This document shows, piece after piece, positions 4,211-24,207 of a stretch of 64,000 nucleotides of DNA. The stretch lies in contig OZ024928.1 in the NCBI GenBank assembly GCA_964017235.1, forward strand, positions 83,633,566 through 83,697,565. Direction: 5' to 3'. A model generated the notes under the pieces. That model worked only from the letters and a program-made list of their open reading frames with translations, did not search any database and was not told the origin of the DNA. Position 1 is the first letter of the stretch; each line of letters starts with the position of its first letter. A program made the position numbers and the translations under genes. The DNA is from Sabellastarte sp. h YS-2021. Lineage: Eukaryota > Annelida > Polychaeta > Sabellida > Sabellidae.

Positions 4211-4595
4211 TTAGTCAAAATTCACTCCTCTGGCTACTTTTCTCTTTTTACTTGAGGGATTCAGAATGCTCATGCCCACTTGTTTTGGTTGAGCTTTGGG
4301 TTGATTTTTGCCTCCTTTACCACCATCTAAGTCCAAGCCCAAACCTGAAACACCTGCACCAGAAGCTTTCTGTTTTTTTAGTGCATCAAAATCATTAGTA
4401 GTCTTTTCTAGTTTAGATTCCAGCACTGAAGTTTTCTCTGCCAGGTGAAATAAAACTGTTTGTAACTCAACCTTCTTCTCCACAGCTTTTGCTTCATAGA
4501 GGTCGAAATTCAAAGCTTTACTACCTTGCCCTACTGTCACATTCACTTTTACACCCATCTGAGATACTTGAAGCTTTCTGTTTTGGAATCCAGAT
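4211..4595 (-). CDS. PAXX: PAXX, exon 2 (Ku-binding C-terminal half)
   Basis: Second and last coding exon of PAXX, the XRCC4/XLF paralogue that supports non-homologous end joining by binding Ku at broken DNA ends in the nucleus. It encodes the last strands of the head domain (VNVTVGQGSKALNFDL aligns with the human SLTLSGGPSALAFDL region), a short coiled coil, a Gly/Lys-rich linker, and the C-terminal Ku-binding motif SILNPSSKKRKVARGVNFD, close to human SLINPGFKSKKPAGGVDFD. The acceptor is a T-rich tract ending in TTTTTAG just above 4595. The exon begins with one base that completes the codon left open by exon 1, so the frames join exactly. The joined protein is 206 residues (human about 204). 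A later AG at 4559-4560 would also be in frame but would drop conserved sequence and break the phase match. Stop TAA at 4211-4213. Confidence 0.9.
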
Positions 4596-5214
4596 CTAAA
4601 AATAAAATTGTTGCAAGATATTGTGTGAAAAACATCAACAACGGAAGATGCAGGTTGGTTAAATGTATTACAACACTGGTAAATTTTGTTGACTGAACTT
4701 CAAATCCTGTTGGAAAAATGAAGGTACTGCCCTGAATCTGAGGTCCAGATTTTGAATGGATTTGAAATTTTGTTGACAAAGTCTGAAATTCTGTGGAAAG
4801 AATTTGAAATCCTGTGGACAGAGCTTTAAATCCTGTTAATGACATTGAGTGTATTGCTCTGAGATCTAGATTTTAGGTTATTTTGCAGAATATTATTTTC
4901 ACATCTTTTTTAATTTACCTACTTACTCATTTTTATTCGAGGCAGTAAGTAGCTGAAAGTAGCTATTGCTTGGCTATGCTATGAGCTGCATGTCTGTAAT
5001 TTTACTACATTATAGCTGACCCAAAAGTAGGTGGATAACATATTAAACTAGAGATTGCATCTCGACGCAGTGTATCCCTGGACGGGACATAGTTAAGGCG
5101 TGAATATGTCGGTCTTGAGCCTGTTTCCTGGAGCACCAGGTCAGGATTCTCCATAAGTACCAGATTACTCCCAAAAGCTAATCACTAGTTCTTTCACTTA
5201 TATCTGTCTTTAAA
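4596..5214 (-). other. Start of the PAXX intron: small minisatellite and repeat debris
   Basis: The 19.4 kb intron runs 4596-23971. Near 4745-4845 a short imperfect repeat of about 20-24 bp (TTTGAAATCCTGTGGACAGA and variants) occurs about four times. 4930-5045 is a decayed piece of the 160-bp repeat. 5045-5214 is unassigned. Confidence 0.6.
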
Positions 5215-6190
5215 ACTAACATTTCATGGATCCAGAAGATCCACATAGTAATCCGGATCACTTCCAAAATTCAATCATTTCATCCGTTTACCTTTGCAGA
5301 CATATTCTAAAAATTTAATCAAAATCGGTCCATAAGTTTTTTAGTTATCTTGTACACAAACACATCTGGCAGCCTGGATCCACATGATCCAGACAGTGAT
5401 CCAGATTACTCCCAAAAACTAATCGCTTGTTCTTTGTCCCATTTAAGACATTTCCTGAAAATTTCATAAAAATCCATCCATGACTTTTTGAGCTATTTGT
5501 CTTTAAAAATTACATTTCTTGGATCCAGAAGATCCAGATAGTGGTCCAGATCACTCGCAAAATTGAATCATTTCTTCCTTTTACCACTTCTTCCTTTTAC
5601 CACTTGTAACATATCCTAAAAATATCAAAATCCATCCCAAGATTATGTGGCAGCCTGGATCCAGATAATCCAGACAGTGATCCAGATCACTCCAAAAATG
5701 TAATCACTTGTTCCTTGTACCATTTAGGCCATTTGCTGAAACAATCCATCCATAACTTTTTGCGGTATCTGTCTTTAAAAATTACATTTCATGGATCCGG
5801 AAGATCCATATAGTTATCCGGATCACTTCCAAAATTCAATTATTTCATCCTTTTACCTTTTTAGACATATCCTGAAAATTTCATCAAAATCCGTCCATAA
5901 GTTTTTTATTTATCTTGTACATAAACACATCTGGCAGCCTGGATCCAGATGATCCAGATCACTCCCAAAATCTAATCACTTGTTCCTGAAAATTTTATCA
6001 AAATCCACCCATGACTTTTTGAGCTATTTGTCTTTAAAATTTGTCTTTATATTTTATGGATCCAGAAGATCCAGATAGTGGTCCAGATCATTCGCAAAAT
6101 TGAACCATTTCTTCATTTCTTCTCTTCCTTCTTACCATTTGTAACATATCCTAAAAATATCATCAAAATTCATCCTAAAACTAGAAAAAG
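5215..6190 (+). repeat. GGATCC-rich 145/290-bp tandem repeat, array 1
   Basis: GGATCC recurs near 5228, 5376, 5521, 5658, 5792, 5941 and 6058. Two half-unit types alternate, one with GGATCCAGAAGATCC and one with CCTGGATCCAGATGATCC, giving a dimer of about 290 bp. Each half also carries a conserved phrase ending AAAATCCATCCATAA. The family recurs at 9045-9590. Confidence 0.85.
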
Positions 6191-6489
6191 GACGCATCTG
6201 TGGCCAGATGCTGGATGTATCCACCGACAAAGGCCAACTAACATAGTTTAGAAGATAAAAAGCATTTTTCGTTAATAAGCAAGCTGAAAGCACTTTTAAG
6301 TTTGGCTACCCTTATTTGACCCTGTAGCAGGGGCCCAAGGTGAAGTCTGACCACATCAAAAGATTCGCAGTCCATGATTTCCTATAAGTCGTTTTCACAT
6401 TGCAAACCTCTAGGACCAATAATAAGCAGGAGGGGCCCAAGGTCAAATCTGACCACATGAAAAGATTTGCAGCCCATGACTTCCTATAA
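6191..6489 (-). repeat. Fragment of the 146-bp repeat family, reversed
   Basis: Contains about one and a half units recognisable by CATGATTTCCTATAAG, ACCAATAATAAGC and GGGGCCCAAGGT, the reverse complement of the array at 33950-35410. Confidence 0.75.
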
Positions 6490-7520
6490 GTTGTTTTCAT
6501 ATTAATGAGTTATTTGAGAAATACTGGCTATCTGCAATACTTGTAGAGATAATTCGCATTTACTCATTTTGAGTAGGTGAATAATTAGCTACGGGTCTGA
6601 AACTTCACCAAGTGAAAGCTCTCTCAAAAGTAGGCGAATGAGTTATTTGAGAAAAATTGGCTATCTACAATACTTTTAGAGATAATTCGAATTTACTCAT
6701 TTTCAGTAGGTGAGTAATTACCTACGGGTCTGGAACTTCACCATGTGAAAGCTCTCCCAAAAGTAGATGAATGAGTTATTTGATAAAAAATTGGATATCT
6801 GCAATACTTTTATAGATAATTAGCATTTACTCATTTTGGGTAGGTGAATAATTAGCTACAGGTCTGAAACTTCACCAAGTGAAAGGTCTCCCAAAAGTAG
6901 GTGAAGGAGTTATTTGACAAAAATTGGCTATCTGGAATACTTTTAGAGATAATTTGCATTAACTCATTTTCAGTAGGTGAGTAATTACCTACGGGTCTGA
7001 AACTTCACCAAGTGAAAGCTCTCCCAAAAGTAGGTGAAGGAGTTATTTGACAAAAATTGGCTATCTGCAATACTTTTAGAGATAATTCGCATTTACTCAT
7101 TTTGAGTAGGTGAGTAATTACCTACAGGTCTGAAACTTCACCAAGTGAAAGCTCTCCCAAAAGTAGGTGAAGGAGTTATTTGACAAAAATTCGCTATCTG
7201 CAATACTTTTAGAGATAATTCGCATTTACTCATTTTGAGTAGGTGAGTAATTACCTACGGGTCTGAAACTTCACCAAGTGAAAGCTCTCCCAAAAGTAGG
7301 TGAAGGAGTTATTTGACAAAAATTGGCTATCTGCAATACTTTTAGAGATAATTCGCATTTACTCATTTTGAGTAGGTGCGTAATTACCTACAGGTCTGGA
7401 ACTTCAGCATGTGAAAGCTCTCCCAAAAGTAGGTGAATGAGTTATTTAAGAAAAATTTGCTATCTGCAATACTTTTAGAGAAAATGCAGAATTACTCATT
7501 TTTAGTAGGCAAGTAATTTA
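6490..7520 (+). repeat. 133-bp tandem repeat array
   Basis: ACGGGTCTG or ACAGGTCTG recurs at 6591, 6724, 6858, 6991, 7124, 7257 and 7390, a strict 133-134 bp period over about seven units. Units are very similar (phrases AACTTCACCAAGTGAAAG and GTAGGTGAAGGAGTTATTTG), suggesting recent amplification or homogenisation. Confidence 0.93.
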
Positions 7521-7599
7521 GCCACAGGCCTAATTTAGACATAAAGCCTACTAATAGAGTACTGTGGTGCACCCTGTAATATACTTTGCAAACTTGAGA

Positions 7600-8630
7600 A
7601 GGCTAGCTATAATATTTTTTTTTGTTTTGAATAACATATTTAAACAAAATACTGTAAATGTAATAGTTTTCACGTTATAACTGATTTACTCAACAGTGAT
7701 AACGTCAAAGTAGCTATTACTCAGCTATGCAATGAGCTACATGTCTGAATTTTTTCTATGTTATAGCTGACCCAAAATTAGGTGAACAACATATTTAAGC
7801 AAAATACTGTAAATGCAATAGTTTTCAAGTTACAACTGATTTACTCAATAGTGACAACCTGAAAATAGCTATTGCTCAGCTATGAAGTCTGTAATTTCAT
7901 GACGTTATAGCTGACCCAAAAGTAGGCGAACAACATATTTTAACAAAATACTCCAAATGCACTATTTTTCAAGTTACAAGTCATTTACTCAACAGTCAGT
8001 ACCTGAAAATAGCTATTGCTCAGTTGTGCCATGAGCTACAGGTCTGTAATTTCACTATGTTATAGCTGACCCAAAAGTAGCTGAATAACATATTTACACA
8101 AATTTCTGTAAATGCAATACTTTTCCAATTACAACTGATTTACTCAACAGTGTGAACTTCAAAGTAGCTATTACTCAGCTATGCAATGAGCCACAGGTCT
8201 GGAACTTCACTATGTTATAGCTGACTCCGAAATAGGTGAATAACATATTGAAACAAAATACTCTAAATGTAATACTTTTGAAGTTATAAGTAATTTACTC
8301 AACAGTGATAACCTAAAAGTAGCTATTACTCAGCTATGCCATGAGCTACAGGTCTGAAATTTTACTATGTTATAGCTGACATAAAAGTAGCTGAATAACA
8401 TATTTATACAAAATTCTGTAAATGCAATAGTTTTCAAGTTACAATTGATTTTACTCATGATGGAAGTTACTGAAAAGCCCAAAAGTAGCTATTACTCACT
8501 TAGCTATTGAGACAGACACCCAAGTTACTCACCACGTTGTAGCTATGAAAAAAGTATCTGAATAACATATTTTAACAAAATGCTCTAAATGCAACACTTT
8601 TCAAGTTATAAGTGATTTAGTGCATGATTT
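7600..8630 (+). repeat. 160-bp tandem repeat array (monomer form of the 321-bp satellite)
   Basis: About six diverged units of 150-160 bp marked by AACATATTTA, GTAAATGCAATAGTTTT, TTTACTCAACAGTG and TAGCTATTACTCAGCTATG. Units differ from one another more than in the 321-bp array, so this block looks older. Confidence 0.88.
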
Positions 8631-9040
8631 CATGACTTTTAATGCATTTTAGACATTTTTATCTACCACAGGCCTAATTTAGACATAAAGCCTACCAAAA
8701 AGATAGGGTGGCGAGTCCTCTAGCATACCAAGCCACCTGCCAAATATGAAAGAAATCTGGAAAGAAATGTGGACTGTAGGTCGCTAACAAGCAATATTCC
8801 ACATTTTAGACATTTTTGTCTACCACAGGCCTAATTTAGACATAAAGCCTACCAAAAAGATAGGGTGGCGAGTCCTCTACCATATCAAATCACCGGCCAA
8901 ATATGAAAGAAATCCGGAAAGAAATGTGGACTGTAGGTCGCTAACAAGAAATCTCTGCCGACGCGGACGCGGACGAGGGCGCGGACGACAACGATGATGA
9001 ATCCATGGTATCCCCGCTTCGCGTCGGGGATACAATTATG
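8631..9040 (+). repeat. 157-bp repeat, two units, followed by GC-rich tail and hairpin
   Basis: CTACCACAGGCCTAATTTAG occurs at 8663 and 8820 (157 bp apart), with a partial earlier copy near 7521. The second unit leads into a CG-rich tail of GACGCGGACG steps and then a hairpin, GTATCCCCG facing CGGGGATAC (9008-9033). A similar tail and hairpin close the block at 10290-10364, so this looks like a shared end module. Confidence 0.8.
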
Positions 9041-9590
9041 TTGCAGCCTGGATCCAGATGATCCAGATCACTCCAAAAATGTAATCACTTGTTCCTTGTA
9101 CCATTTAGGTCATTTGCTGTAAATGTCATCACAATGTAAAATTACATTTCATGGATCCAGAAGATCCATATAGTGATCCGGATCACTTCCAAAATTCAAG
9201 CATTTCATCCTTTTACCTTTTCAGACATATCCTGAAAATTTAATCAAAATCCATCCATAAGTTTTTGAGCTATATTGTACAGAAACACATCTGGCAGCCT
9301 GGATCCGGATGATCCAGACAGTGATCCAGATCACTCCGAAAATCTAATCACTTGTTCCTTGTCCCATTAAGGACATTTCCTGAAAATTTCATCAAAATGC
9401 ACCCATAAGTTTTTGAGTTATCTGTCTTTAAAAATTAAATTTCATGGATCCAGAAGATCCAGACAGTGATCCGGATCACTCCCAAAATTTAATCATATCT
9501 TCCTTTTACCATTTTGGACATACCCTGAAAATTTTATGAAAATCCATCTATCAGTTTTTGAGTTATCTTGTTCACAAACAAACAAACAAA
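9041..9590 (+). repeat. GGATCC-rich 145/290-bp tandem repeat, array 2
   Basis: Same alternating half-units as the array at 5215-6190, with GGATCC near 9051, 9154, 9300 and 9447. The block ends in a run of ACAAACAAACAAAC. Confidence 0.85.
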
Positions 9591-10075
9591 TAGAGGGCCA
9601 AAAATGACCCTCGGTCAGTTATCTTGTTCACAAACAAACAGAGGGCCAAAAATGACCCTCGGTCAGGTACTTTGGTGGTCAGTGGATGACCTTAAATGAA
9701 GATCTGTAACCGGGAAGCCTGGATGCTGGTACTCCATCATGTACTCAACCTCCAAAGCCATTTTCAATAGTTTCCATCCAATGTAGTCAGCATTAAGTGT
9801 GAAAATATCTCCAAATTTGCCAAAAATGACCCTTGGTCAGGTACTTTGGCGGTCAGTGGATGACCTTAAATGAAGATCTGTAACCAGTAAGCCTGGATGG
9901 TAGAAGTCCATCATGTACTCAACCTCCAAAGCCATTTTCAATAGTTTCCATGCAATATAGTCAGCATTAAGTGTGAAAATATCTCCAAAAAGGCCAAAAA
10001 TGACCCTCGGTCAGGTACTTTGGCGGTCAGTGGATGACCTTCAATGAAGAGCTTCAAGGTCAAATTTCTGCATGC
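9591..10075 (+). repeat. 174-bp tandem repeat, about 2.5 units
   Basis: GGTCAGGTACTTTGG recurs near 9662, 9836 and 10010 with 174-bp spacing. Each unit also carries GTCAGTGGATGACCTTAAATG and AGTCAGCATTAAGTGTG. Confidence 0.9.
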
Positions 10076-10366
10076 TTACAGAGGACATATATATGTATTA
10101 TATATACCACCCATAGGATGATCTGACTTTCTGTATAGGAAATGGCCAAAAATCTGACCTTTAAGAGGCCACCAGTGACCTTGAGATTGAAGGTCAAGGT
10201 CACAAAACAATAGCGTTCGTGGCATTGCCCATATATACCCACATACCAAATTTGAAAGTTCTAACTAAAATATTTTTTAAGTTATCGCGTCCAAAAGGAA
10301 ATCTCTGCGGCGGTGACGTGACCGTACTGAATCCTAAGTATCCCCGACATTCGTCCGGGGATACAA
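10076..10366 (+). repeat. Element tail ending in a GTATCCCC hairpin
   Basis: Contains a DR0-like AGGTCAAGGTCA near 10190, the shared phrase AAATCTCTGCGGCGG and a terminal inverted repeat GTATCCCCGAC facing GTCCGGGGATAC (10338-10364). It matches the tail at 8945-9033 and probably closes the 174-bp-core element. Confidence 0.7.
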
Positions 10367-11820
10367 CAAAATACTCTAAATGCAATAGTCTTCAAGTTAC
10401 AACCCATTTACTCAAGAGTGAGAACCTGAAAGCAGCTATTGCTCAGCTATACAGTGAGCTACAAGTCTGCAATTTCACTATGTTATAGGTGACTGAAAAG
10501 TAGATGAATAACATATTTAAAGAAAATACTGTACATGCAATAGTTTTCAAGTTACAACTGATTTACTCACCAGTGAGAACTTGAAAATAGCTATTGCTCA
10601 GGTACGCCATAACTACTGATATCCGATTTCACTGTGTTATAGGTGACCCATAAGTAGATACATAACATATTTAAACAAAATTTCCTTAAATGCAATATTT
10701 TTCGAGTTACAACTGATTTACTCAACTGTCAGAACCTCAAAGTAGCTATTACTTCACTTTGCAGTGTTACAGGTCTGCAATTTCACTATGTTACGGTGAC
10801 TGAAAGTAGGTACATAACATATTAAAGAAAACACTGTACATACGATAGTTTTCAAGTTACAACTGATTTACTCAATAGTGTGAACCTTAAAGTAGCTATT
10901 GCTCAGCTATGCCATGAGCTACATATCTGCAACTTTAACATATATTAGCTGATCAAAAAGTAGGTGCATAACTTATTTACACAAAATTCTGTAAATGCAA
11001 TAGTTTTTGATTACAACTAATTTACTCAATAGTGAAAACCTGAAAGTAGCTATTGCTTAGCTGCGCAATGAACTACAGGTCTGCAATTTCACTATGTTAC
11101 AGGTGACTGAAAGTAGCTGAATAACATTTTTAAGGCAAATATTGGAAATACAATAGTTTTTAAGTTATAATCGATTACTCAACAGTAAAAACCTCAAAGT
11201 AGCTATTTCTGCGCCTTGCAATGAGCTATAGGTCTGCAATTTTACCATGATATGACTGACCCAAAAGTAGGTGAACAACATATTTATACAAAATACTTAA
11301 ATGCAATAGATTTTGAGTTACAATTGATTTACTCAACAGTGAGAACCTAAAAGTAGCTATTGTTCAGCTATGCCATGAGCCACATGTCTGCAATTTTACT
11401 ATGTTATAACTGAACCAAATGTAGATGAATAACATATTTAAAACAAATTATCTAAATGCAACAGTTTTCAAATTACAAGCAATTTACTCAACAGCGATAA
11501 CCTCAAGGTAGCTATTACTCAGCTATGCAATGAGCTACAGGTCTCTAATTTTACTATGCCATAGCTGACCCAAAAGTAGCTGAATAACATATTTTATACA
11601 AAATTCTCTATGTGCAATAGTTTTCAAGTTACAAGTGATTTTATCCATTACGGAAGGTAATGAAAATTCAGAAAGTAGCTATTACTCACTTAGCTGTTGG
11701 GATAGATACCCAAGTTACTGGCCATGTTGTAGCTTTGGGAAAAGTAGCTGAATAACATATAAAAACAAAATGCTCTAAATGCAATAACTTTGAAGTTATA
11801 AGTGAATTAGTGCATTATTT
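10367..11820 (+). repeat. 160-bp tandem repeat array
   Basis: About nine diverged units of the family at 7600-8630, same strand, marked by GTTTTCAAGTTACAACTGAT, GAGCTACAGGTCTGCAATTT and TGACCCAAAAGTAG. It runs directly into the end module at 11821-12205. Confidence 0.9.
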
Positions 11821-12205
11821 CCTGAATTTTAATACATTAAAAATTGTTTTAAAAATTCACAAAAAAATAATTAAAAAAAGAGGCTTGAAACTAACAGAAG
11901 GGAAACTACTTGTGGTCTAGTACATGTCTTTGCAAGATAAGACAGAAATCCCTGCAATGAGAAAATTGTGATAAAGTTTTGAAATTTTCACACTTTAGGT
12001 GGGGTTACCCCATTTGCAATGGCTCTGGGGAACAGAAAATGAACAGATCTGCATGGCTTGAATATTTTTCATCCTCGATAATTAAGGTGTCTTTTTTTTT
12101 TAAAAAAAACAGTATGTCTCTGGCCCTTGTACTTTTGGAGCAGAAGTTGTTCATGTGGATGCTGCAGATTGATGCCATAATGTCAGGTTGACATAAAAAT
12201 AGGTG
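11821..12205 (-). repeat. End module of the 160-bp-core element, reversed
   Basis: Reverse complement of the module at 33258-33610 and 46520-46870: shared pieces include GCAATGAGAAAATTGTG, ACAGTATGTCTCTGG and ATGCCATAATGTCAG. In all three places it abuts a 160-bp array, so it is a true end of that element type. Confidence 0.75.
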
Positions 12206-12530
12206 GCAGCAATCTTAGAAACAAGATGGTGAACGCAAATTTTTTTTTTTTCAAAAGTTGTCCCCCTTCACCCTGAAACAAACACAGAAAACCTGAAGAT
12301 GATATCTTGAACCATTTTGCTATAATGAGGAAAATTAGAAACTGAAGGAAAAAGTAAAACAAGCAATCAGTGACCAATGTATCTGTCACATCTCTTGAGT
12401 TGGCATGACCTTGATAAAATATGTCTCACAAGCAAATTGTTCTCAGGGATGGAGCATGCATAAGCCTTCAGGTTTTAAAAACCCCTAATATTTCTAGAGA
12501 CAAACAGCTGTAAGATAAACAATGGCAAAG
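12206..12530. other. Nothing recognised
   Basis: AT-rich sequence between two repeat blocks. A short open frame on the minus strand has poly-Phe and poly-Lys runs from homopolymers and is not credible as a gene. Confidence 0.5.
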
Positions 12531-13770
12531 TTAAATGTGCAATAGAGGTCACAAAGTAACATTACACATATACACTCCCCAACCAATGTCCCCAGCAAGT
12601 ATCATCTGCCTACACCTTATGATTTCTGAGATATAGCCTGGATAAGATTTTAAAGGTCAAAGTAGGGCAAGGTCGTATCAAGGTCACAGCATGACAATGC
12701 ACACCTACATCCCCTAACCAATGTTCCTTCCAATTGGCTACTTCTTAGTTCTTACACTATATGGTTTCCTAGATATAACCCGGACAAAATCTTAAAAAGT
12801 CAGGGTCAATACAGCAAGGTAAAAGGTCAAATCAAGGTCACACCAAGATATTGCACACCTACACCCTCCACCAAACATCCATATTAAGAATCCATTTCCT
12901 ACACTGTATTACTACTGCAAGGTCACATCAAGGTCACACCATGACATTGCACACCTACAACCCCTAACCAATGTCCATACCAAGTATCAACTTCCTACAT
13001 CTTACAGTTTTCCAAGATTTATAGAATTTATAGGTCAAGGTTACTATGGCAAAGTCAATGGTCAAATCAAGGTCACCCCATGACATTGCACACTTACAAC
13101 CCCCTAACTCATGTTCCTACCAAGTATCAACTTCCTACATCTTACAATTTCTGAGATATAGCCCAGACAAGATTTTAGCACTCAGGAAGGTCAAAAGTCA
13201 ATCAGCAAGGTCAAAGGTTAAATCAAGGCTATGCCATAATGTTGCACACCTACAACCCCCAAGTAATGACCCTCTCAAGTATCAACTTCCTACATCTTGT
13301 GGTTTCTGCGATATATCATGGACAAGATTTTTATAGGTGAAGGTCACTACAGCAAGGTAAAAAGTCAAATCAAAGTCATACCATGACCTTGCAAACCTAC
13401 AACCACTGTCCCTACCAAGTAGTACCAAGTATCAACTTCCAACACCTTAGGTTTCCGAGATATTGCCCGGACAAAATTTTAAAAGTCAAGGTAACTACAG
13501 CAAGGTCAAATCAAGGTCACACCATGATGTTGTACTGTTGTACACCTATACCCCCAGTCAATACTAAGTATGAACTTCCTACACCTTATGGATGCCAAGA
13601 CACAGGCCAGACAAGATTTTAAAGTTTACGGTCACTATAGCAAGGTCAAAGGTCACTGAAGGTCACAGTATGATGTTGCACACCTACACCCCCAACCAAT
13701 GTACTTACCAACTATAAACCTTCTATAGCTTACAGTATAAACCTTCAGATAAAGCATTTGTAAAACAAAT
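12531..13770 (+). repeat. 142-bp tandem repeat array without element ends
   Basis: About eight diverged units of the repeat found in the elements at 2776 and 14028, with TATCAACTTCCTACA, GAGATATAGCCC and AAGGTCA-rich segments. No terminal hairpin is seen on either side, so this is either a decayed element or its detached core. Confidence 0.85.
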
Positions 13771-14027
13771 TTAATCCACTGTCCAGTGTGTAAAACACTA
13801 ATGACGCACAAGCAAAACATACAGACTAGAGAAGCTATGATCATGCTGTGACTTGTCTATTTCTGCAATAACCTGACATACTTTTACAGCCTACTTGTTG
13901 AAAAGGCAGAAACAGGGGGATAAACTTATGCATACAAGTAACTGAAGATGGTGGGATGTAGTTTTTCTGTTTATTGGGTTACATGTACACCCACAGAATT
14001 ATACCCAGTGTTACATCAGAATGTAAA
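13771..14027. other. Nothing recognised
   Basis: Spacer between two 142-bp-repeat blocks; no repeat or gene signature seen. Confidence 0.5.
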
Positions 14028-15052
14028 AATAGCATCAGAGATGCCCTTACCCCACAGCCTAGGGAAATATTTTCAACACCATGAGATATAGAAGTACTGT
14101 ACCAGTACAAAGTTCAGGATACTTCCAGAGCACTGTCAGCTATATAAAGGTCCAAACAATGTTTAAATGGAGAAAATAATGTTTAAAAGAAAGATAATGC
14201 ATGTAAAGATGAAGTATTAAAACAAGATAATTCAATAACAAGATGACAGCATTAATCAGTAAACTAAACATTACAACACTCTTTATCTACATCTGCATGG
14301 CCGAATTATGGTTTAGATGTTTTGAATATTACCATTCATACAGAAGTGATAATACATTTAATGAATGCTTATGTGTGGTGTTGGAGCAAAATCTGTGGCT
14401 CACTTGATGAAATTCCATCACATCAAGGTCAGACCATGATGCTGCATGCCTACAGCCCCTAACCAATGTCTCTACCAAATATCAACTTCCTACACCTTAC
14501 AGTTTCCGAGATATACCCCGAACAAGATTTTATAGGTCAAGGTCACTACGGCAAGGTCAAATCAAGGTCAGACCATGATGTTGCACACCTACACCCCCTA
14601 ACCAATGTCCCTACCAAGTATCAACTTCCTACACCTTACGGTTTCCGAGATATAGCCCGGACAAGATTTTATAGGTCAAAGTCACTACGGCAAGGTCAAA
14701 GGTCAAATCAAGGTCAGACCATGACGTTGCACAACTACACCCCCTAACCAATGTCCCTACCAAGTATAAACTTCCTACACCTTACGGTTTCCGAGATATA
14801 GCCCGGACAAAATTTTCACACTTAAGGACACTACGGCAAGGTCAAAGGTCAAATCAAAGTCAGACCATAACGTTGCACACCTACACCCCCTAACCAATGT
14901 CCCTACCAAGTATCAACTTCCTACACCTTACGGTTTCTGAGATACAGCCCGGACAAACTTTTTCACGCCGCCCACCCACCCGCCCGCCCGCCCATCCAGA
15001 CACCATGGGTGAAAGCAATACCCCGACGGCCCTTACGGGCTCTGGGGTAAAA
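14028..15052 (+). mobile_element. Hairpin-ended non-autonomous element with 142-bp core repeats (copy 2)
   Basis: The left end AGCATCAGAGATGCCC then TTACCCCACAGCC matches copy 1 at 2776. A roughly 370-bp left flank follows, then about four very similar 142-bp units, then a CCCGCCC-rich stretch and a closing hairpin, ATACCCCGACGGCCC facing GGGCTCTGGGGTA. Units here are more alike than in the array at 12531, so amplification is more recent. The units carry DR1-type AGGTCAAAGGTCA. Confidence 0.75.
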
Positions 15053-16320
15053 ATCATTGCATTGGTAATTTGAATGAAATGTCTTTTTTTTATGTCCTGT
15101 AGCTTTCATACATGCACAAATTACCACTCTTTAAATAAATTTCACATTGAAAACTTATTTGTAAGAATGTTTCAGCAAACAGACATTTTAACAAGAAAAT
15201 CCCACAGATCAATATACATACTAAATTGTTATAATATTACTAAGGTTGCAATGGCTGCACCATCTTAACACATGAGGCTAGTTCTGAACTCGCAGTCCTA
15301 TCAAGTGCGCGGACTTGAAACTATGCATGGTGCTGAAACAGCCACAACAATAATATTTATAAAACTTTCACGACAAATATTTCTATTTGATCATCAGGTT
15401 ATATATTTGATATATTCATCAGGTCACAGATTTCCATGGTAGTTTCTTAACAATATTTTCTGCTTAAACATCAAATACTAGGTTGACTACACAGCTCATG
15501 AATATTTATATATGTGTAGGGCATATCTGACAATTCTGTGGGATTTTTTAACAATATTTTACTTGAAAATAAAAAATGGGGGACTACTTATTAATATTCA
15601 TGAGGTCATGATATTCTGTGGGGTTTCCCAATTTAGACAAAAACTTAAAAACCACAATGCCGTGACAGGAGTCACTTCATTGACAATTTGGTTGAACAAT
15701 AAAAGAATTTAATATAATTAATGAAGTGACTGGAGTACGGTAAATCACCACACACGAGAAGAAATTCTACAGTACAGTAGCCTCATTTGCTGTATTCCAG
15801 TTAATTAACTAGAGTGCGGTTCAAGCTGGTATCCTAAAGTTCTGGAGTGAAGGAAATATGATGTCTCGATGGGGGTTTCTATATTTTAGAAATAGAATTT
15901 TAAGTCTAGCAATGTTTTACAAATAAAATATCGAATGCTAGTACTTGTACACATGCAGACTTAAGAATATATATGAGTACACGATGGATTTTCTAGCAAT
16001 ATTTTACAAACAGAAGTCTAGCAATATTTTATTCTTACCGCACCTACTGTTGAAGTTTTCCAGCAGTATTTTACAAATAGAATATCAAATGCTAGTACTT
16101 GCACACACAGACTTAAGGAAACATGAGGCCACAATGGGGTTCCTAGCCATATTTTACAAATAGAAGATCCAGCCTACCAGTCTTTTTTTCGTCTGCAGAC
16201 GTGATTAATATAATTAACCAATGAAAACAATTGTTACTGTTAAAGACCTGGAGTACGGCAATCCATACTGTAGCATATTTTCTTGGGAACGGTTTTACCG
16301 TACCGCAGCCGCGCCCTATA

Positions 16321-16554
16321 CTGCCTTGCTACCAATTATCACCGGGTACCAATTATCGCCAGACAAAATTCAAACAGACATAACTTGACCAAAAGTACAC
16401 CCCAAGTCAAGCAGATAAGGTAAAACTATTTCAACAGTGAACAGAACGGACACACAATGAAAAGCTTTCAAAATATGTGGCCGATACTAAAATATGAATG
16501 TTTTATTTTCTGGTGGCGATAATGGGTACCCGGTGATAATTGGTAGCACAGCAG
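16321..16554. mobile_element. MITE with TA target duplication (family M1, copy 1)
   Basis: 234 bp flanked by TA on both sides, with inverted termini starting CTGCCTTGCTACCAATTATC on the left and, on the opposite strand, CTGCTGTGCTACCAATTATC. The termini extend about 40 bp through the GGGTACC site. TA duplication and size fit a Tc1/mariner-type MITE (inference). Copies are at 17998-18231 (by duplication) and 29701-29936. Confidence 0.85.
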
Positions 16555-16589
16555 TAATTAAAGCTGTCAAAATAATTTAACGGTCTTAG

Positions 16590-16757
16590 AGGCAGCAGAG
16601 ATGGACAGGGTTAGCGAGGAGGTGAGATGGAAGAGATGGAGCTGGATAGGGCATGTCCTAAGGAAGGATCAGCTAGAGGATTGTGCTGTAGCCCTTGGAT
16701 GGACACCAGAAGGGAGAAGGAAAAGAGGCCGCCCAAAAACAACTTGGTGAAGAATTA
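16590..16757 (+). mobile_element. RTE-type LINE 3' tail, fragment 1
   Basis: Translation gives WSWIGHVLRKDQLEDCAVAL followed by GWTPEGRRKRGRPKTTW, the hallmark C-terminal segment of RTE-type LINE reverse transcriptases. It ends abruptly at the duplication junction. An in-frame stop right after PKTTW shows it is a relic. Confidence 0.8.
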
Positions 16758-17997
16758 CTTTTTTTTATGTCCTGTAGCTTTCATACATGCACAAATTACC
16801 ACTCTTTTAAATAAATTTCACATTGAAAACTTATTTGTAAGAATGTTTCAGCAAACAGACATTTTAACAAGAAAATCCCACAGATCAATATACATACTAA
16901 ATTGTTATAATATTACTAAGGTTGCAATGGCTGCACCATCTTAACACATGAGGCTAGTTCTGAACTCGCAGTCCTATCAAGTGCGCGGACTTGAAACTAT
17001 GCATGGTGCTGAAACAGCCACAACAATAATATTTATAAAACTTTCACGACAAATTTTTCTATTTGATCATCAGGTTATATATTTGATATATTCATCAGGT
17101 CACAGATTTCCATGGTAGTTTCTTAACAATATTTTCTGCTTAAACATCAAATACTAGGTTGACTACACAGCTCATGAATATTTATACATGTGTAGGGCAT
17201 ATCTGACAATTCTGTGGGATTTTTTAACAATGTTTTACTTGAAAATAAAAAATGGGGGACTACTTATTAATATTCATGAGGTCATGATATTCTGTGGGGT
17301 TTCCCAATTTAGACAAAAACTTAAAAACCACAATGCCGTGACAGGAGTCACTTCATTGACAATTTGGTTGAACAATAAAAGAATTTAATATAATTAATGA
17401 AGTGACTGGAGTACGGTAAATCACCACACACGAGAAGAAATTCTACAGTACAGTAGCCTCATTTGCTGTATTCCAGTTAATTAACTAGAGTGCGGTTCAA
17501 GCTGGTATCCTAAAGTTCTGGAGTGAAGGAAATATGATGTCTCGATGGGGGTTTCTATATTTTAGAAATAGAATTTTAAGTCTAGCAATGTTTTACAAAT
17601 AAAATATCGAATGCTAGTACTTGTACACATGCAGACTTAAGAATATATATGAGTACACGATGGATTTTCTAGCAATATTTTACAAACAGAAGTCTAGCAA
17701 TATTTTATTCTTACCGCACCTACTGTTGAAGTTTTCCAGCAGTATTTTACAAATAGAATATCAAATGCTAGTACTTGCACACACAGACTTAAGGAAACAT
17801 GAGGCCACAATGGGGTTCCTAGCCATATTTTACAAATAGAAGATCCAGCCTACCAGTCTTTTTTTTCATCTGCAGACGTGATTAATATAATTAACCAATG
17901 AAAACAATTGTTACTGTTAAAGACCTGGAGTACGGCAATCCATACTGTAGCATATTTTCTTGGGAACGGTTTTACCGTACCGCAGCCGCGCCCTATA

Positions 17998-18231
17998 CTG
18001 CCTTGCTACCAATTATCACCGGGTACCAATTATCGCCAGACAAAATTCAAACAGACATAACTTGACCAAAAGTACACCCCAAGTCAAGCAGATAAGGTAA
18101 AACTATTTCAACAGTGAACAGAACGGACACACAATGAAAAGCTTTCAAAATATGTGGCCGATACTAAAATATGAATGTTTTATTTTCTGGTGGCGATAAT
18201 GGGTACCCGGTGATAATTGGTAGCACAGCAG
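17998..18231. mobile_element. MITE family M1, copy 2
   Basis: Copy carried along by the tandem duplication; same TA flanks and termini as 16321-16554. Confidence 0.85.
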
Positions 18232-18300
18232 TAATTAAAGCTGTCAAAATAATTTAACGGTCTTAGAGGCAGCAGAGATGGACAGGGTTAGCAAGGAGGT

Positions 18301-18314
18301 GAGATGGAAGAGAT
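18301..18314 (+). repeat. Target-site duplication, left copy
   Basis: GAGATGGAAGAGAT, repeated without change at 22860-22873 just after the poly(A) tail. The uninterrupted site in duplication unit 1 (GAGATGGAAGAGATGGAGC, from 16624) shows the pre-insertion state. Confidence 0.93.
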
Positions 18315-18315
18315 T

Positions 18316-18465
18316 GTGCAGAGAAGAAATATGTTTTCACCAACTCTCACAGCTGCCTACAAATCTCCTGGTAACAGAGCCTTCTTGTCAGGGGATAAAC
18401 TTGTGCTGAATGGTAAGACAAAAGTTGTGTTTCTTTGTAACAATATAAATACTTTACCTTTGTAG
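18316..18465 (+). pseudogene. LINE ORF1 C-terminal remnant
   Basis: The frame running into the TAG at 18463-18465 reads AYKSPGNRAFLSGDKLVLNG, resembling the end of L1-superfamily ORF1 RNA-binding proteins (typical pattern ARxxGKRAFFRGDKLxxDG). The element starts inside this frame, so ORF1 is truncated at its 5' end. The assignment rests on a short stretch. Confidence 0.6.
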
Positions 18466-18909
18466 CAGTAATTCATTGATCCCAAAATTTCTTTTTACTG
18501 TTTTGTAAAGTACACCAAGTATCCCTTTTTAATGGGCTTTAATTAGCTAAATATACAATTAATAGGCTCGTAAATGAAATAAGGTTTATTTTACTTGTGG
18601 AGTTGCTTGAAATAATTTCTTTGCATATTCTCACTTTTGATTTTTTACTTATATATATCTTTAGTAATCACTATATGGCACCATGTTCTGTTAGTATGTT
18701 TTTACTTGCATATTATTACAATGTTAACATAATTTGTTTTAATAACTGTGTGATCTTAACACTAGGACTAGCTGATACCCATATTAAACAGACCCTAACA
18801 TATGAACAACTTTCTTGCTCTTGCAATCAAAGTAAAAATTTTGGCATATTCAGGATTCGAACCATTTTAATCATGCTGCTGTCCTTAAGAGAGTCCATCC
18901 AAAACCTAT

Positions 18910-21900
18910 ATGTCACAAGGTGAAGAACTGTTGGTATTGTCAGCAAACTGTCAAGGGCTTCAGAATAAGCAGAAACGAATGGACGTCTTAGATTATCTGG
19001 GAAAAACCAATGCTAGCATTATCTGTCTACAAGATACCCACTGGACTTCTAATGACGAATCAATTGTAAGGTCAATGTGGAAAGGAGATGTAATTTTAAA
19101 TGGTGAATCCTCAAACTCTAGAGGTGTAGCCATATTGTTAAATACAAATTTTGAATATTCAATTATTTCCCTTTACAAAGACAAAGAAGGGAATATGATC
19201 TCTCTTGATTTGAACTTTGGAGATACATCCATCAAATTACTTAATATGTATGCACCTAATAAAGATAGTCCTGAATTCTTTGAGAAAGTAAAAGATATTT
19301 TGCACTCTAATAAGCAAACATTTATAATGATTGTTGGTGATTTTAATTTGATATTGGACCCTCTGCTTGACTGTGATCAATATAAGCATCTTAATAACCC
19401 ACGATCTAGAAAAGTTGTTTTTGATATTATGAATATTTTTAATCTTATTGACATTTTTCGCTTTCAACATCCTGCCTTGAAACGATTTACGTGGAGACGA
19501 AAGAATCCATTTCGTCAGGCAAGATTAGATTACTTTCTAGTATCACATGCAATGCAAGATGTTATAACGGGCAGTTCTATTAACCCAGGATATAAAAGTG
19601 ATCATTCTAATATTAGACTTAAAATACTAATAAACAAATTTGTAAGAGGCAGGGGACTCTGGAAACTCAATTGCAGTCTTTTGAAAGAACAGTCATATCT
19701 AGATCTGGTAAATTCTATAATCGATGAAGAAAAACAGAAGTATTCTGTTCCAGTGTATAATTTAGATCACATTGGAAAAATTCCAGATAGTTTAGTCACT
19801 TTTACTATATCTGATGATCAGTTCATAGAGATGGTTTTACTTCGAATACGGGGTGAGACAATAAAATTTGCTTCATTTCAGAAAAGAAAAAAAGCTGAAC
19901 AAGAAAACAAATTAGTTAAGGAAATAGCTGATTTAGAATCCAAACTAGGTCATGACAACTTGGTTATTATGGAGGAGAAAAAGGTTGAGCTAGAAAAGCT
20001 TAGAGAAAGGTCCATCCAAGGAAATATTATAAGATCAAGGGCCCAATGGTTAAATGAAGGGGAGAAACCTTCTAAATATTTTTGTTCTCTGGAAAAATAC
20101 AATTATGTGGAAAAAACAATAAAACATATCCAAATCGACAGTGGCAAAAAAATATCTGACCAAAAAGAAATTTTGAAAGAAATACAACATTTTTACGCTA
20201 AGCTTTTTTCTACCCAAAATACTGAAGCTAAAGGCATTGATTTGGAAAGTATTTTGAAGAGCTCTCAGTTTAGGTGGCTGACCGACTTAGAATCAGCTAA
20301 ACTAGAAGGGGAACTTAAACTTGACGAACTTAGTAAAGCTTTGTATAAAATGAAAAATAATAAATCGCCTGGGGTAGATGGTTTCCCTGCTGAATTTTTT
20401 AAAGTATTTTGGAAAAAATTAAAATTTTTTGTTTTGAGAGCTTTGAATACGGCATTTACAACTGGCAGAATGTCTGTCACAATGAGAACCTCCATAATAA
20501 ATTGTTTACCGAAAGGTAACAAACCAAGAGAATTCCTGAACAACTGGCGTCCTATCTCACTTTTGTCAGTGTTGTATAAATTGGCCTCTGCTGCAATAGC
20601 AGAAAGACTAAAATCAGTTTTGCCTGATCTCATTTCAAAAACACAAAATGGGTTCCTAAAAGGGCGTTTTATTGGAGATTGTACCCGCCTTGTCTATGAC
20701 ATTATGGAATATCTTGAACACAACAATTTAACTGGGCAGCTAATGCTGGTGGATTTTCAGAAAGCTTTTGACTCAGTTTCTTGGTCTTTCCTAAAAAGAG
20801 TACTTAAAATGTACAATTTTGGCGATGAATTTTGTAAATGGATTAATATTTTCAACACCGACATTGAGGCGTTTATACTTCAGTCTGGTTTTTTGTCAAA
20901 ACCTATTAATATTGAAAGAGGTTGTAGGCAAGGCGATCCAATAGCAGCTTATTTGTTTCTTATCTGTGCAGAAGTCTTGTACCTATTTTTTCAAGATAAT
21001 CCCGATATTAAAGGGATATCTATAAATAATAATAATTATAAAATGACTCAGTTTGCTGACGATACTACTGTATTTCTTGATGGAACCAAGGACTCTCTGG
21101 TAGCAGCATTAAATACCCTAGAAATATTTGGTTCTTTGTCTGGGCTAAAAATCAATATGGATAAAACAAAAATTGTTTGGTTAGGGAAAAAAAAGCACTC
21201 AATGGATAAATTTGAAATCGGCTACAAACTGGACTGGGGCACAGAATTCAAGTTACTTGGAATTAACTTTTCTGTGGACTTGAGGGATATTCCAGGAATT
21301 AATTACACACCAGTTTTAAAAACTATAACCAAAACTTTAAGCAATTGGCAAAGAAGAAATCTGACTCCAATTGGTAAAATAGCTGTCATCAAAACTTTTG
21401 TTATCAGTGCTTTAACTCATATGTTTTCGGCAATCCCATCACCTTCTAGTGACGTTATTATGCATTTGAATCAGATATTCTATTCATTTATCTGGAATAA
21501 TAAACCACATAAAATCAGTAAAAAGCAGATTACAAATACCTATATTAAAGGGGGTCTCCAAATGGTGAACTTAGATAATTTTATAATGTCCCAGAAACTG
21601 GTCTGGATAAAACGACTATACACCACTGAAACTCCCTGGGCAAAGCTTTTGTCATCTTCAATGTCTGTTAAAAGACTTTACTACATGGGACCTTCGTGGT
21701 CAAAATTTCAATCAGAAAAAACATCCAACCTGTTCTGGAAAGATGTGTTCAAAGCTTGGTACTATTATTTAAACGAAGTAACCTTCAAGGCCACCGAATT
21801 ATTAACTGTCCCTCTGTGGTACAATTCTCTGCTTTCTACACAGAAGATTTTCTTTCCTCATTGGTATCAAGCTGGAATAAGCATGCCTTTAGACATCGTT

Positions 21901-22695
21901 AAATCAGATGGTAGAATTTTAAGTATAATCGAATTAAGACAGACTTTTGGTTTAAGAACCAACTTTCTTGAATACCATTCAATTGAAAGAGTTCTTAAAA
22001 GGGTACTGAAACAAACAAACCCTGATACTTACACTAGACCTGTTTTTTCCCCATACTTAAAAATGTTAACTAGTCATAGAAAAGGCTCCAAATTTTTCTA
22101 CGAAATTCTGAATTCCCAATTTAAAAATGAAAAACTAAGAGATAAGTGGAACAATATTCTAGACACAACTATAAATGACAGTGACTGGGACAAAATTTAT
22201 AAGATATGCTTTAAAACTATAGGAAGGAATGACCTCATTTTGCTTCAGTTTAGAATTATTCAAAGAATACTGGGAACCAGAGCATACTTGTACAAAATCA
22301 ACATAGGTAACAGTGACTCTTGTCGATTTTGTCAAACTGCAGTGGAAACAATACATCATATGTTTGTAAGTTGTCCCATAGTTTCTGACTTCTGGAAAAC
22401 AATACAACATTGGCTCCAACATCTTGGGCTATATCTTAACATACAACCAATAACAATTTTGTTTGGAAACTTAGAAAACGAGCTTGACCTATTTTCTAAG
22501 AATCTCATACTCTTAGTAGTAAAAAAGTTTATTTGGACCCAGTTACAGAAATCGAAATCTTTGAATCTGCTTGATTTCAAGTACTGTATGAAGAATATTT
22601 ATGAGGAGCAAGAATATATAGCAAAATTAAATGATAGTCTTGAAAGGTTCAATGTGTCATGGTCGATTTGTAAAGATTTAACAATGTTAGTGTAA
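18910..22695 (+). CDS. LINE ORF2: endonuclease and reverse transcriptase
   Basis: An uninterrupted 1261-residue ORF2. Residues 1-235 are an apurinic-like endonuclease that nicks target DNA: SANCQG near 11, LQDTHW near 40 (Asp where many relatives have Glu), GDFN near 143, SDH near 230. Residues about 460-790 are the reverse transcriptase with KSPGVDGFPAEF, RPISLLSV, LVDFQKAFDSV, GCRQGDPIAAYLF and the catalytic FADD at 715-718. A C-terminal CCHC knuckle (CxxC, H, C from 1138) is typical of the L1/Tx1 group. The start ATG gives the whole endonuclease domain. All catalytic motifs are present, so the protein could be functional, although the copy lacks most of ORF1. Confidence 0.95.
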   Translation: MSQGEELLVLSANCQGLQNKQKRMDVLDYLGKTNASIICLQDTHWTSNDESIVRSMWKGDVILNGESSNSRGVAILLNTNFEYSIISLYKDKEGNMISLDLNFGDTSIKLLNMYAPNKDSPEFFEKVKDILHSNKQTFIMIVGDFNLILDPLLDCDQYKHLNNPRSRKVVFDIMNIFNLIDIFRFQHPALKRFTWRRKNPFRQARLDYFLVSHAMQDVITGSSINPGYKSDHSNIRLKILINKFVRGRGLWKLNCSLLKEQSYLDLVNSIIDEEKQKYSVPVYNLDHIGKIPDSLVTFTISDDQFIEMVLLRIRGETIKFASFQKRKKAEQENKLVKEIADLESKLGHDNLVIMEEKKVELEKLRERSIQGNIIRSRAQWLNEGEKPSKYFCSLEKYNYVEKTIKHIQIDSGKKISDQKEILKEIQHFYAKLFSTQNTEAKGIDLESILKSSQFRWLTDLESAKLEGELKLDELSKALYKMKNNKSPGVDGFPAEFFKVFWKKLKFFVLRALNTAFTTGRMSVTMRTSIINCLPKGNKPREFLNNWRPISLLSVLYKLASAAIAERLKSVLPDLISKTQNGFLKGRFIGDCTRLVYDIMEYLEHNNLTGQLMLVDFQKAFDSVSWSFLKRVLKMYNFGDEFCKWINIFNTDIEAFILQSGFLSKPINIERGCRQGDPIAAYLFLICAEVLYLFFQDNPDIKGISINNNNYKMTQFADDTTVFLDGTKDSLVAALNTLEIFGSLSGLKINMDKTKIVWLGKKKHSMDKFEIGYKLDWGTEFKLLGINFSVDLRDIPGINYTPVLKTITKTLSNWQRRNLTPIGKIAVIKTFVISALTHMFSAIPSPSSDVIMHLNQIFYSFIWNNKPHKISKKQITNTYIKGGLQMVNLDNFIMSQKLVWIKRLYTTETPWAKLLSSSMSVKRLYYMGPSWSKFQSEKTSNLFWKDVFKAWYYYLNEVTFKATELLTVPLWYNSLLSTQKIFFPHWYQAGISMPLDIVKSDGRILSIIELRQTFGLRTNFLEYHSIERVLKRVLKQTNPDTYTRPVFSPYLKMLTSHRKGSKFFYEILNSQFKNEKLRDKWNNILDTTINDSDWDKIYKICFKTIGRNDLILLQFRIIQRILGTRAYLYKINIGNSDSCRFCQTAVETIHHMFVSCPIVSDFWKTIQHWLQHLGLYLNIQPITILFGNLENELDLFSKNLILLVVKKFIWTQLQKSKSLNLLDFKYCMKNIYEEQEYIAKLNDSLERFNVSWSICKDLTMLV

Positions 22696-22873
22696 AGTTA
22701 ATAAAGTTAATTTTGCCAAAAAGTATCTAGCTAGTTGTAGTATTACACATTACTATGCTATTGTTTTTGTTAATTTCACAAAACTATTATTTTTGTACTA
22801 GTATGCAAGTTTTGTATATATATTTTTAAAAAAAAATAAAAAAAAAAAAAAAAAAAAAAGAGATGGAAGAGAT

Positions 22874-23125: not shown

Positions 23126-23151
23126 TAAAATAATTTAACTTCAAAATATTA

Positions 23152-23350
23152 GTAGTGGTGGACCAATTCACACCCACCCCTAAATTTATCCAAAACAATC
23201 ACAGTTAAACAACAAATTACAAATGTAAATGATCCATTTAATGATTATCTATGATGTGGTAAACATCTTCTCAATGAGAAATAATAGATCTTCAAGAAAA
23301 TTGAGGGTGGGCCTGAATTGGTACCCGGGCGTGAATTGGTCCACCACCAC
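23152..23350. mobile_element. MITE with TA target duplication (family M2)
   Basis: 199 bp flanked by TA. Left end GTAGTGGTGGACCAATTCAC, right end on the opposite strand GTGGTGGTGGACCAATTCAC. The interior has no coding capacity. Both M1 and M2 carry a GGGTACC near the inner end of a terminus, hinting at relatedness. Confidence 0.85.
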
Positions 23351-23396
23351 TAACTTCTGCATGGGCATTTACTGTTATAAAGCCAGTAACCAACCA

Positions 23397-23947
23397 GGGC
23401 CGTATTCACGAAAGGTCTTAGCCAGGGCTTAGGCTTAAAGTTGAGACTTCTGCCCAAAACCTGCTAAGACTTTTGTCTTAGGCTTAGTGGTATTCACAAA
23501 GAATTTAAGACCAGTCTTAGGCTTAGCCAAGGGCTCAACTTTAAGGCTGGTTGGTAGTCGGCTTAAATTTTGTAAAGAGGACTTAAATATGGCTGCCATA
23601 AACTTTTCTCCAAAATTTGAAATGGCTGTAAATAAAGTATAATTATACAGAACACCTCACTAAAGCAGTCTTTGAGAATTTATATGCGGTAACAAGGTTT
23701 TCCCTTTCAAAACAGCACTTTTCCTTAGATAAAATACATTAAATGAAGGATATAAGTCACCAATAGTATAGTTTGAATAAAAAAGAAAGGTCACATGACA
23801 CAGAAAACCACTGTGGCTATTTGATAATCTTGGACTTAGCTAAGTCACCCTTTGTCATTCGGTTTTAAGACAAATTTAAACTTAGCCGAAACAAAAGTCT
23901 TAACTTTAAGACTGGATTTAAGCCTAAGACCCTTCGTGAATACCAGC
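23397..23947. mobile_element. MITE family M3, copy 1, at the PAXX exon 1 donor
   Basis: About 550 bp with inverted ends TATTCACGAAAGGTCTTAG and, on the opposite strand, TATTCACGAAGGGTCTTAG. Interior landmarks AAATATGGC and CACATGACACAGAAAACCAC recur in copies at 24664-25225 and 31119-31673. Its right end lies about 24 bp inside the PAXX intron from the exon 1 splice donor. Confidence 0.85.
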
Positions 23948-23971
23948 ACAGAAATAAAGTGGAATGAGCAC

Positions 23972-24207
23972 CTTAAATTTGACATGTAAGCTTCAGAATT
24001 CATATTAGAAAGCTCCCTGAGGACATCAAATTCATCATTGTCCATTTCAAGTCTCCAAAACTCCAATCCATCACTGGCACAAATTATAAAATTATCTGTA
24101 TTTTTATCAACCCTTGTGAAAAGCAAAAATTTGGATGTTCCATTATCTACTATCGAAAGCAAATCATTACATTTGCCTTCGCAAATCATGTCAACAAATG
24201 ATGCCAT
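23972..24207 (-). CDS. PAXX: PAXX, exon 1 (head domain N-terminal part)
   Basis: First coding exon of PAXX, 236 bp, from the ATG at 24205-24207. It encodes the first 78 residues of the XRCC4-like beta-barrel head. The segment SKFLLFTRVDKNTDNFIICA and the following ASDGLEFWRLEM match human FVCYC...GGFNLYVTDAAELWSTCF in spacing and pattern. The donor is AAG|GTGCTC (exon ends at 23972), leaving a phase-2 codon AG that exon 2 (4595) completes with A. Across the junction, the two halves align to human PAXX without a gap from the LR codon to NFDL. The protein acts with Ku, XRCC4/LIG4 and XLF in end joining. The donor is non-consensus after GT, so splicing strength is uncertain. Confidence 0.88.

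What the first reader, a model, noticed from the sequence alone, without database searches (positions are those of the whole stretch)
4211..24207. A PAXX gene hidden in two exons 19.4 kb apart
The two short frames look unrelated at first, but the exon 1 donor leaves AG and the exon 2 acceptor supplies A. The joined 206-residue protein aligns gap-free with human PAXX across the junction and ends in the Ku-binding motif. The intron is almost wholly mobile DNA. A compact end-joining factor carried on such a long, repeat-filled transcript is easily missed by gene finders, and PAXX has a patchy record outside vertebrates.
Basis: partly seen in the sequence, partly recalled or inferred. Interest (0 to 1): 0.72.

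Follow-up and report, generated by a model that had tools for sequence, protein, structure and literature searches.

The report
Fan-worm PAXX gene, two exons
This stretch carries a copy of PAXX, a DNA-break repair gene often described as missing from most invertebrates, split into two exons by a 19-kb repeat-filled intron in what is probably a feather-duster worm; one amino acid in its Ku-binding tail matches a laboratory change that strengthens the human protein's grip.

Summary
Exons at 24207-23972 and 4595-4211 (minus strand) join, through a 19,376-base GT-AG intron, into 206 residues. The joined protein matches Pfam PAXX at 70.6 bits, E 1.8e-19, against 17.2 and 47.7 bits for the two open frames alone. 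It is single-copy; XRCC4, XLF, DNA-PKcs, Ku70 and ligase IV match elsewhere in the genome. The tail keeps S184, N187, V199 and F201 of the human Ku70-binding motif in register. Contig lengths point to the annelid Sabellastarte sp., with public RNA-seq. Cautions: the donor GTGCTC is weak and Pfam does not fix the exact junction; a spliced read is needed. One addition: the residue matching human K193 is arginine. In human PAXX, K193R makes Ku binding constitutive; this animal's Ku70 has Asp at the contacting E250. Invertebrate PAXX is not new: a coral orthologue was described in 2015. It is an ordinary new family member with one testable twist.

The parts
23972..24207 (-). PAXX exon 1 coding part: residues 1-78 plus the first two bases (AG) of codon 79; first half of the head domain
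   Evidence: Pfam XRCC4 head 4.3e-5 and PAXX 0.004 on the open frame; fold of exon 1 alone H4-9 E15-21 E26-34 E39-45 E50-55 H57-76, mean pLDDT 75
23966..23971 (-). 5' splice site AAG|GTGCTC (weak: C at +4, T at +5)
   Evidence: compared with inferred Ku70 donors of the same genome
4596..23971 (-). 19,376-base intron, about 87% repeat
4596..4609 (-). 3' splice site with T-rich tract AATTTTATTTTTAG|A
4211..4595 (-). PAXX exon 2 coding part: end of codon 79, residues 80-206 and stop; rest of head, coiled coil, tail
   Evidence: Pfam PAXX 1.9e-12 on the open frame alone; fold of exon 2 alone E8-11 E14-21 E24-31 then helix 35-78 with ten-residue block means of 94-98 at its core
4214..4270 (-). Ku70-binding motif, residues 188-206 SILNPSSKKRKVARGVNFD
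   Evidence: against human 184-202; critical residues from PMC10413649
4241..4243 (-). codon AGA for Arg197, at the place of human Lys193
   Evidence: K193R phenotype from PMC12357295
18315..22859 (+). young LINE inserted antisense to PAXX, 1268-codon EEP/RT/zf-RVT frame at 18889-22695, A-rich tail 22828-22859
18301..18314 (.). left copy of a 14-base probable target-site duplication (GAGATGGAAGAGAT)
   Evidence: read by eye; right copy at 22860-22873
22860..22873 (.). right copy of the probable target-site duplication
   Evidence: read by eye
15083..18314 (.). recent tandem duplication, 15083-16637 and 16758-18314, 99.55% identical
5201..14956 (.). several tandem arrays, mostly of 96-310-base units; the array at 10365-11641 has genome-wide relatives

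Best explanation
This is the single-copy PAXX orthologue of an annelid, probably Sabellastarte sp. It is transcribed from the minus strand and spliced from two coding exons over a 19.4-kb intron that has grown by repeat insertion and duplication. Exon 1 encodes beta strands 1-4 and the following helix of the XRCC4-type head. Exon 2 encodes the remaining strands, the coiled coil that would make the dimer, a flexible linker and a C-terminal Ku70-binding motif. It most likely works as in vertebrates: Ku70/80 loads on a broken DNA end, the PAXX tail docks in the groove by the Ku70 vWA domain, and the PAXX dimer helps hold two DNA-PK-bound ends together for XRCC4/ligase IV. Shown by computation: homology, architecture, intact frames, conserved motif, most Ku70 contacts, presence of partner genes. 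Inferred: transcription, the exact splice junction, protein binding and function.
For: Pfam PAXX 70.6 bits over 8-192/194, about 6 bits more than the two open frames summed. Human PAXX is the best PDB match. Claimed join best of 196 against human PAXX; the runner-up there (24125/4595) falls to 47.6 bits on Pfam. Single copy. XRCC4, XLF, DNA-PKcs, Ku70 and ligase IV matches at separate loci. The human motif residues S184, N187 and the V199/F201 pair, whose mutation abolished Ku binding in vitro, are kept in register. Of five Ku70 contact residues, R165, F471 and R517 are kept. Folds of the separate exons give complementary halves of the family architecture.
Against: No transcript was examined. 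The donor GTGCTC is weak: 10 of 13 inferred Ku70 donors of this genome, and 8 of the 9 better-supported ones, have G at +5. Pfam scores three neighbouring joins within 0.1-1.6 bits of the claimed one, so the junction could shift by a few residues. No AATAAA or ATTAAA lies within 1.5 kb of the stop, only AGTAAA at +199 and weaker variants further on. Foldseek matches of the exon models are weak: exon 2 has 3wtf PAXX on top but at E 0.38; for exon 1 unrelated chains come first and a named XRCC4 structure (3ii6) is rank 12 at E 0.97. Ku70 H163 is Tyr and E250 is Asp. The XLF evidence is thin: one partial match with a TGA inside the stretch on C21 and one on C472, which may be a contaminant contig.
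Confidence: 0.9

Rival explanations
1. A PAXX gene whose exon boundaries differ somewhat from the claim, for example a donor 20-30 bases downstream paired with an acceptor at 4573 or 4577, or a small extra exon in the intron. This overlaps with the best explanation, which leaves the exact junction open.
For: The claimed donor is weak. Joins 23948/4577, 23944/4573 and 23950/4573 score 70.5, 69.7 and 69.0 bits against 70.6 (6 of the 195 other joins were sent to Pfam).
Against: These three use equally weak or GC donors and acceptors without a T-rich tract, and score 108 against 115 on human PAXX. The claimed join fills profile positions 8-192 with 185 residues, leaving no missing segment. None of the 10 intron ORFs sent to Pfam, out of 94 of at least 45 codons, matched a family above its cut-off; a very small exon would escape this.
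Confidence: 0.12
2. A decaying PAXX pseudogene: homologous exons remain but the gene no longer splices properly.
For: Weak donor and a very long repeat-filled intron with a recent LINE insertion.
Against: 206 codons are open, the motif residues are kept, and no other copy was found in the genome.
Confidence: 0.05
3. The protein is a divergent XRCC4 or XLF, not PAXX.
For: The exon 1 open frame alone scores better on the XRCC4 head than on PAXX (23.9 against 17.2 bits).
Against: Joined: PAXX 70.6 bits, XRCC4 21.4 (below its 26.2 cut-off), no XLF match at E up to 1. Separate XRCC4 and XLF matches exist. The C terminus follows the human PAXX motif.
Confidence: 0.01

Closest known systems
Human PAXX (C9orf142, XLS); PDB 3wtf, 7zwa
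   Same: XRCC4-type head, coiled coil, C-terminal Ku70-binding motif with S184/N187/V199/F201 equivalents in the same spacing
   Different: Weak overall similarity (phmmer 30.8 bits); Arg at the K193 place; ends two residues short of the 204-residue human chain; 19.4-kb intron here, human gene structure not examined
Coral XLS/PAXX orthologue (Craxton et al. 2015, PMC4423191)
   Same: Invertebrate PAXX with predicted XRCC4-like fold (passages seen)
Human PAXX K193R gain-of-function mutant (PMC12357295)
   Same: Arginine at the same place in the motif (passages)
   Different: Natural, not engineered; the partner Ku70 residue is Asp instead of Glu250

Membership tests
PAXX (PF15384) | profile match above the curated cut-off (25 bits) | tested here: met
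   70.6 bits joined, 47.7 bits for the exon 2 open frame alone
PAXX (PF15384) | XRCC4-type head (seven strands, count recalled) followed by a coiled-coil helix | tested here: inconclusive
   The folds of the two exons alone supply 4 + 3 strands and a long helix, but they are single-sequence models of halves and Foldseek matches were weak
PAXX (PF15384) | C-terminal Ku70-binding motif with S184, N187, V199, F201 | tested here: met
   all four kept in register
PAXX (PF15384) | distinct from the genome's XRCC4 and XLF | tested here: met
   the XLF matches are partial or on a doubtful contig
PAXX (PF15384) | binds Ku70 at DNA ends and supports end joining | not testable with these tools
   needs protein; Ku70 contacts R165, F471, R517 kept, E250 to Asp, H163 to Tyr
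Two-exon gene model | canonical GT-AG intron with compatible phase | tested here: met
   donor weak
Two-exon gene model | spliced transcript across 23972/4595 | not testable with these tools
   RNA-seq run ERR12318605 is named in PMC13234546 but cannot be read here

The most novel reading that the evidence does not exclude
This annelid naturally carries the arginine that in human PAXX makes Ku binding constitutive and speeds repair of breaks needing end processing, with a Glu-to-Asp change at the contacting residue of Ku70. Its PAXX-Ku pair may therefore be a pre-assembled high-affinity complex, or a length-compensated pair (longer Arg, shorter Asp) of ordinary strength. Either outcome would bear on whether the vertebrate complex evolved towards weaker binding, a question raised by the authors of PMC12357295 (passage).
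Probability: 0.2. Interest if true: 0.5.

Novelty: new member of a known kind. Interest (0 to 1): 0.36.

Why it matters
PAXX was described as present in vertebrates but absent from most invertebrates and co-evolving with DNA-PKcs (PMC4339890, passages). An annelid genome with PAXX, DNA-PKcs, Ku70, XRCC4, XLF-like and ligase IV matches suggests that the set is older, and that absences may be partly a matter of short, divergent, widely split exons: this protein matches human PAXX only weakly (30.8 bits) and its first exon scores below the Pfam cut-off by itself. The arginine in the Ku-binding motif offers a natural test of a published gain-of-function result.

Tried and rejected
Searches for relatives of exon 2 in viral contigs (4 pattern stretches) and genome contigs (42 pattern stretches) gave none confirmed, as expected for an animal gene. 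I first took the animal for a mollusc from its repeats; the mitochondrial contig and the contig lengths then pointed to Sabellastarte. Paper searches for PAXX with XRCC4 and mollusc or with annelid each found one paper, PMC8549938, whose mollusc and invertebrate passages concern DNA-PKcs and Ku80. No annelid PAXX paper was found by these two searches of an open-licence library; the listing of a wider search showed 12 of 1,670 papers, none of them holding PAXX. Foldseek on the half-models was too weak to use. A hidden coding exon in the intron was looked for in 10 of 94 ORFs and not found. XRCC4/XLF identity was rejected on scores.

The Pfam test of the 193 place (with R) compared K 73.1, R 70.6, Q 70.1, E 69.5, S 69.1, A 69.0 and P 68.3 bits, so among these seven residues the family model prefers lysine. 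It is not a count of species, and other animals with arginine cannot be excluded.
Full report
What was checked. Joining 24207-23972 to 4595-4211 gives 621 bases and 206 residues with a GT-AG intron of 19,376 bases. The window sits at C2:83633566-83697565 of a 1.786-Gb assembly.

What it is. Pfam PAXX (PF15384) matches the joined protein at 70.6 bits, E 1.8e-19, residues 22-206 on profile positions 8-192 of 194. Exon 1's open frame alone gives 17.2 bits and exon 2's alone 47.7, so the join adds about 6 bits over the sum. Human PAXX chains are the best PDB matches at E 2e-6. XRCC4 scores 21.4 bits, under its cut-off of 26.2, and XLF is not reported. A whole-genome search with the joined protein gives three matches: these two exons and one at E 6.9. 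Elsewhere in the genome there are matches to XRCC4 (C8, over the cut-off), XLF (two over the cut-off: a partial one on C21 with a TGA inside the stretch, and one on C472, a contig that may be a contaminant), DNA-PKcs (seven matches to DNAPKcs_CC3 on C5, six over the cut-off), Ku70 (C8) and the ligase IV tail (C3).

The junction. Against human PAXX residues 36-202 the claimed pair is the best of 196 frame-consistent donor/acceptor pairs: 115, then 112 for a GC-donor join that drops most of the head, then 108. The acceptor has a good T-rich tract. The donor AAG|GTGCTC is weak. In the Ku70 gene of the same genome 13 joins were inferred by alignment to human Ku70; 10 of the 13 have G at +5. Four joins are poor because of large gaps or missing residues (my judgement); of the other nine, eight have G at +5. 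Six other PAXX joins were sent to Pfam: 23948/4577 gives 70.5 bits, 23944/4573 69.7, 23950/4573 69.0, 23972/4697 57.0, 24125/4595 47.6 and 24075/4692 47.2, against 70.6 for the claimed one. So the two-exon structure is well supported, while the exact donor rests on alignment to human and on acceptor quality. PAXX's intron is longer than any of the 13 inferred Ku70 introns, the largest of which is 7,926 bases.

Architecture. Folded separately and without an alignment, exon 1 gives a short helix, four strands and a helix (mean pLDDT 75), and exon 2 gives three strands and a 44-residue helix (mean pLDDT 70, helix core blocks 94-98). That fits an XRCC4-family head (seven strands, recalled) split between strands 4 and 5, plus the coiled coil. 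Foldseek ranks PAXX 3wtf first for exon 2, but at E 0.38. For exon 1, unrelated chains come first and a structure titled as XRCC4 (3ii6) is rank 12 at E 0.97. These matches are not evidence by themselves.

Ku-binding tail. PMC10413649 (outline, sections 7 and 8 and passages read) reports that S184A, N187E and the V199A/F201A pair showed no Ku interaction in vitro, and that all motif mutations tested reduced recruitment in cells. In register, the window protein has S188, N191, V203 and F205; 10 of 19 motif positions are identical. Ku70 contacts from the same paper and from PMC12357295 (passages), read on the C8 Ku70 exons: R165, F471 and R517 kept, E250 to Asp, H163 to Tyr. The equivalent of human K193 is R197. 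In PMC12357295 the human K193R change makes Ku70 binding much stronger and DNA-independent, speeds repair of radiation and oxidative breaks and mislocalises Ku to nucleoli; R193 lies within bonding distance of Ku70 E250 and bonds Ku80 backbone carbonyls. The Pfam model prefers Lys to Arg here by 2.5 bits, so Arg is not the family norm. Whether other animals share it could not be counted.

The intron. Tandem arrays cover 33% of it. blastn against 190 kb of background not chosen for these repeats (window flanks and 18 loci) covers 40%. A LINE insertion at 18315-22859 covers 23%. It carries a 1268-codon endonuclease/RT/zf-RVT frame, an A-rich tail and a 14-base probable target duplication that I read by eye. 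It is one of a young family: 52 matches (40 of 2,938 candidates scored, so a lower bound), 10 of them, the window's own included, over the whole 3,807-base query at 99-100% identity. Three copies compared over 4.15-4.44 kb are 99.75-99.82% identical to it. A 1.56-kb tandem duplication is 99.55% identical. The union is 87%, a figure whose background includes three LINE copies I had fetched on purpose. The exon sequences have no hit in that background.

Organism. Of seven chromosome-size contig lengths seen here, four (190.50, 189.25, 155.04, 94.87 Mb) and the 15,345-base mitochondrial contig agree with Sabellastarte sp. h YS-2021, wsSabSpea1.1, in PMC13234546 (passages, outline and section 16 read). 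Three do not: 112.75 against 113.46 listed, and 99.70 and 31.40, which are not listed. The total (1,785.96 against 1,786.39 Mb) and scaffold count (647 against 723) also differ. So it is probably this species in another release of the assembly.

Known or new. Xing et al. (PMC4339890, passages) state that PAXX is absent in most invertebrates; Craxton et al. (PMC4423191, passages) describe a coral orthologue. The finding is a new member of a known family, with a long but unremarkable intron and one residue that makes a published gain-of-function result testable in nature.

Noticed in passing
window 18315-22859 (+): Young LINE family with an intact 1268-codon frame: 10 places (this one included) match the whole 3.8-kb query at 99-100% identity; this copy lies antisense in the PAXX intron.
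   Followed up: partly
window 15083-16637 and 16758-18314: Tandem duplication, 99.55% identical over 1.56 kb, cut by the LINE insertion; 132 bases of the unit recur after the LINE at 22860.
   Followed up: partly
window 10365-11641 and other arrays: About 154-base tandem units with 17,466 first-look candidates genome-wide (40 scored) and matches mostly of about 80-85% on many contigs; arrays in both orientations in the window (by eye). Family not identified.
   Followed up: partly
window 39010-40269 (+) and 41243-42745 (+): Two long single open frames beside PAXX: a TFIID-18kDa-domain protein (Pfam 1.5e-24) and a protein with two RRM stretches (2.7e-15); SUPT3- and RNPC3-like by recall.
   Followed up: no
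window 49550-54121 (+): Overlapping long frames that look like a DIRS-type element (reverse transcriptase and tyrosine-recombinase-like text, by eye).
   Followed up: no
window 58508-60613 (-): Frames of a probable surface protein: IgGFc_binding domain in the frame 60080-60613 (Pfam 2.2e-11).
   Followed up: no
L040 (G000:C472:10001-20000): 32-kb contig with a second XLF-like match in one 273-codon frame near a cuticle-protein-like frame (by eye): possibly an arthropod contaminant contig in the assembly.
   Followed up: partly
L043 and L044 (G000:C647): Mitochondrial contig of 15,345 bases with protein genes on both strands: COX1-3 on one, ND1, ND2, ND4-6, CYTB and ATP6 on the other (gene names read by eye).
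   Followed up: partly
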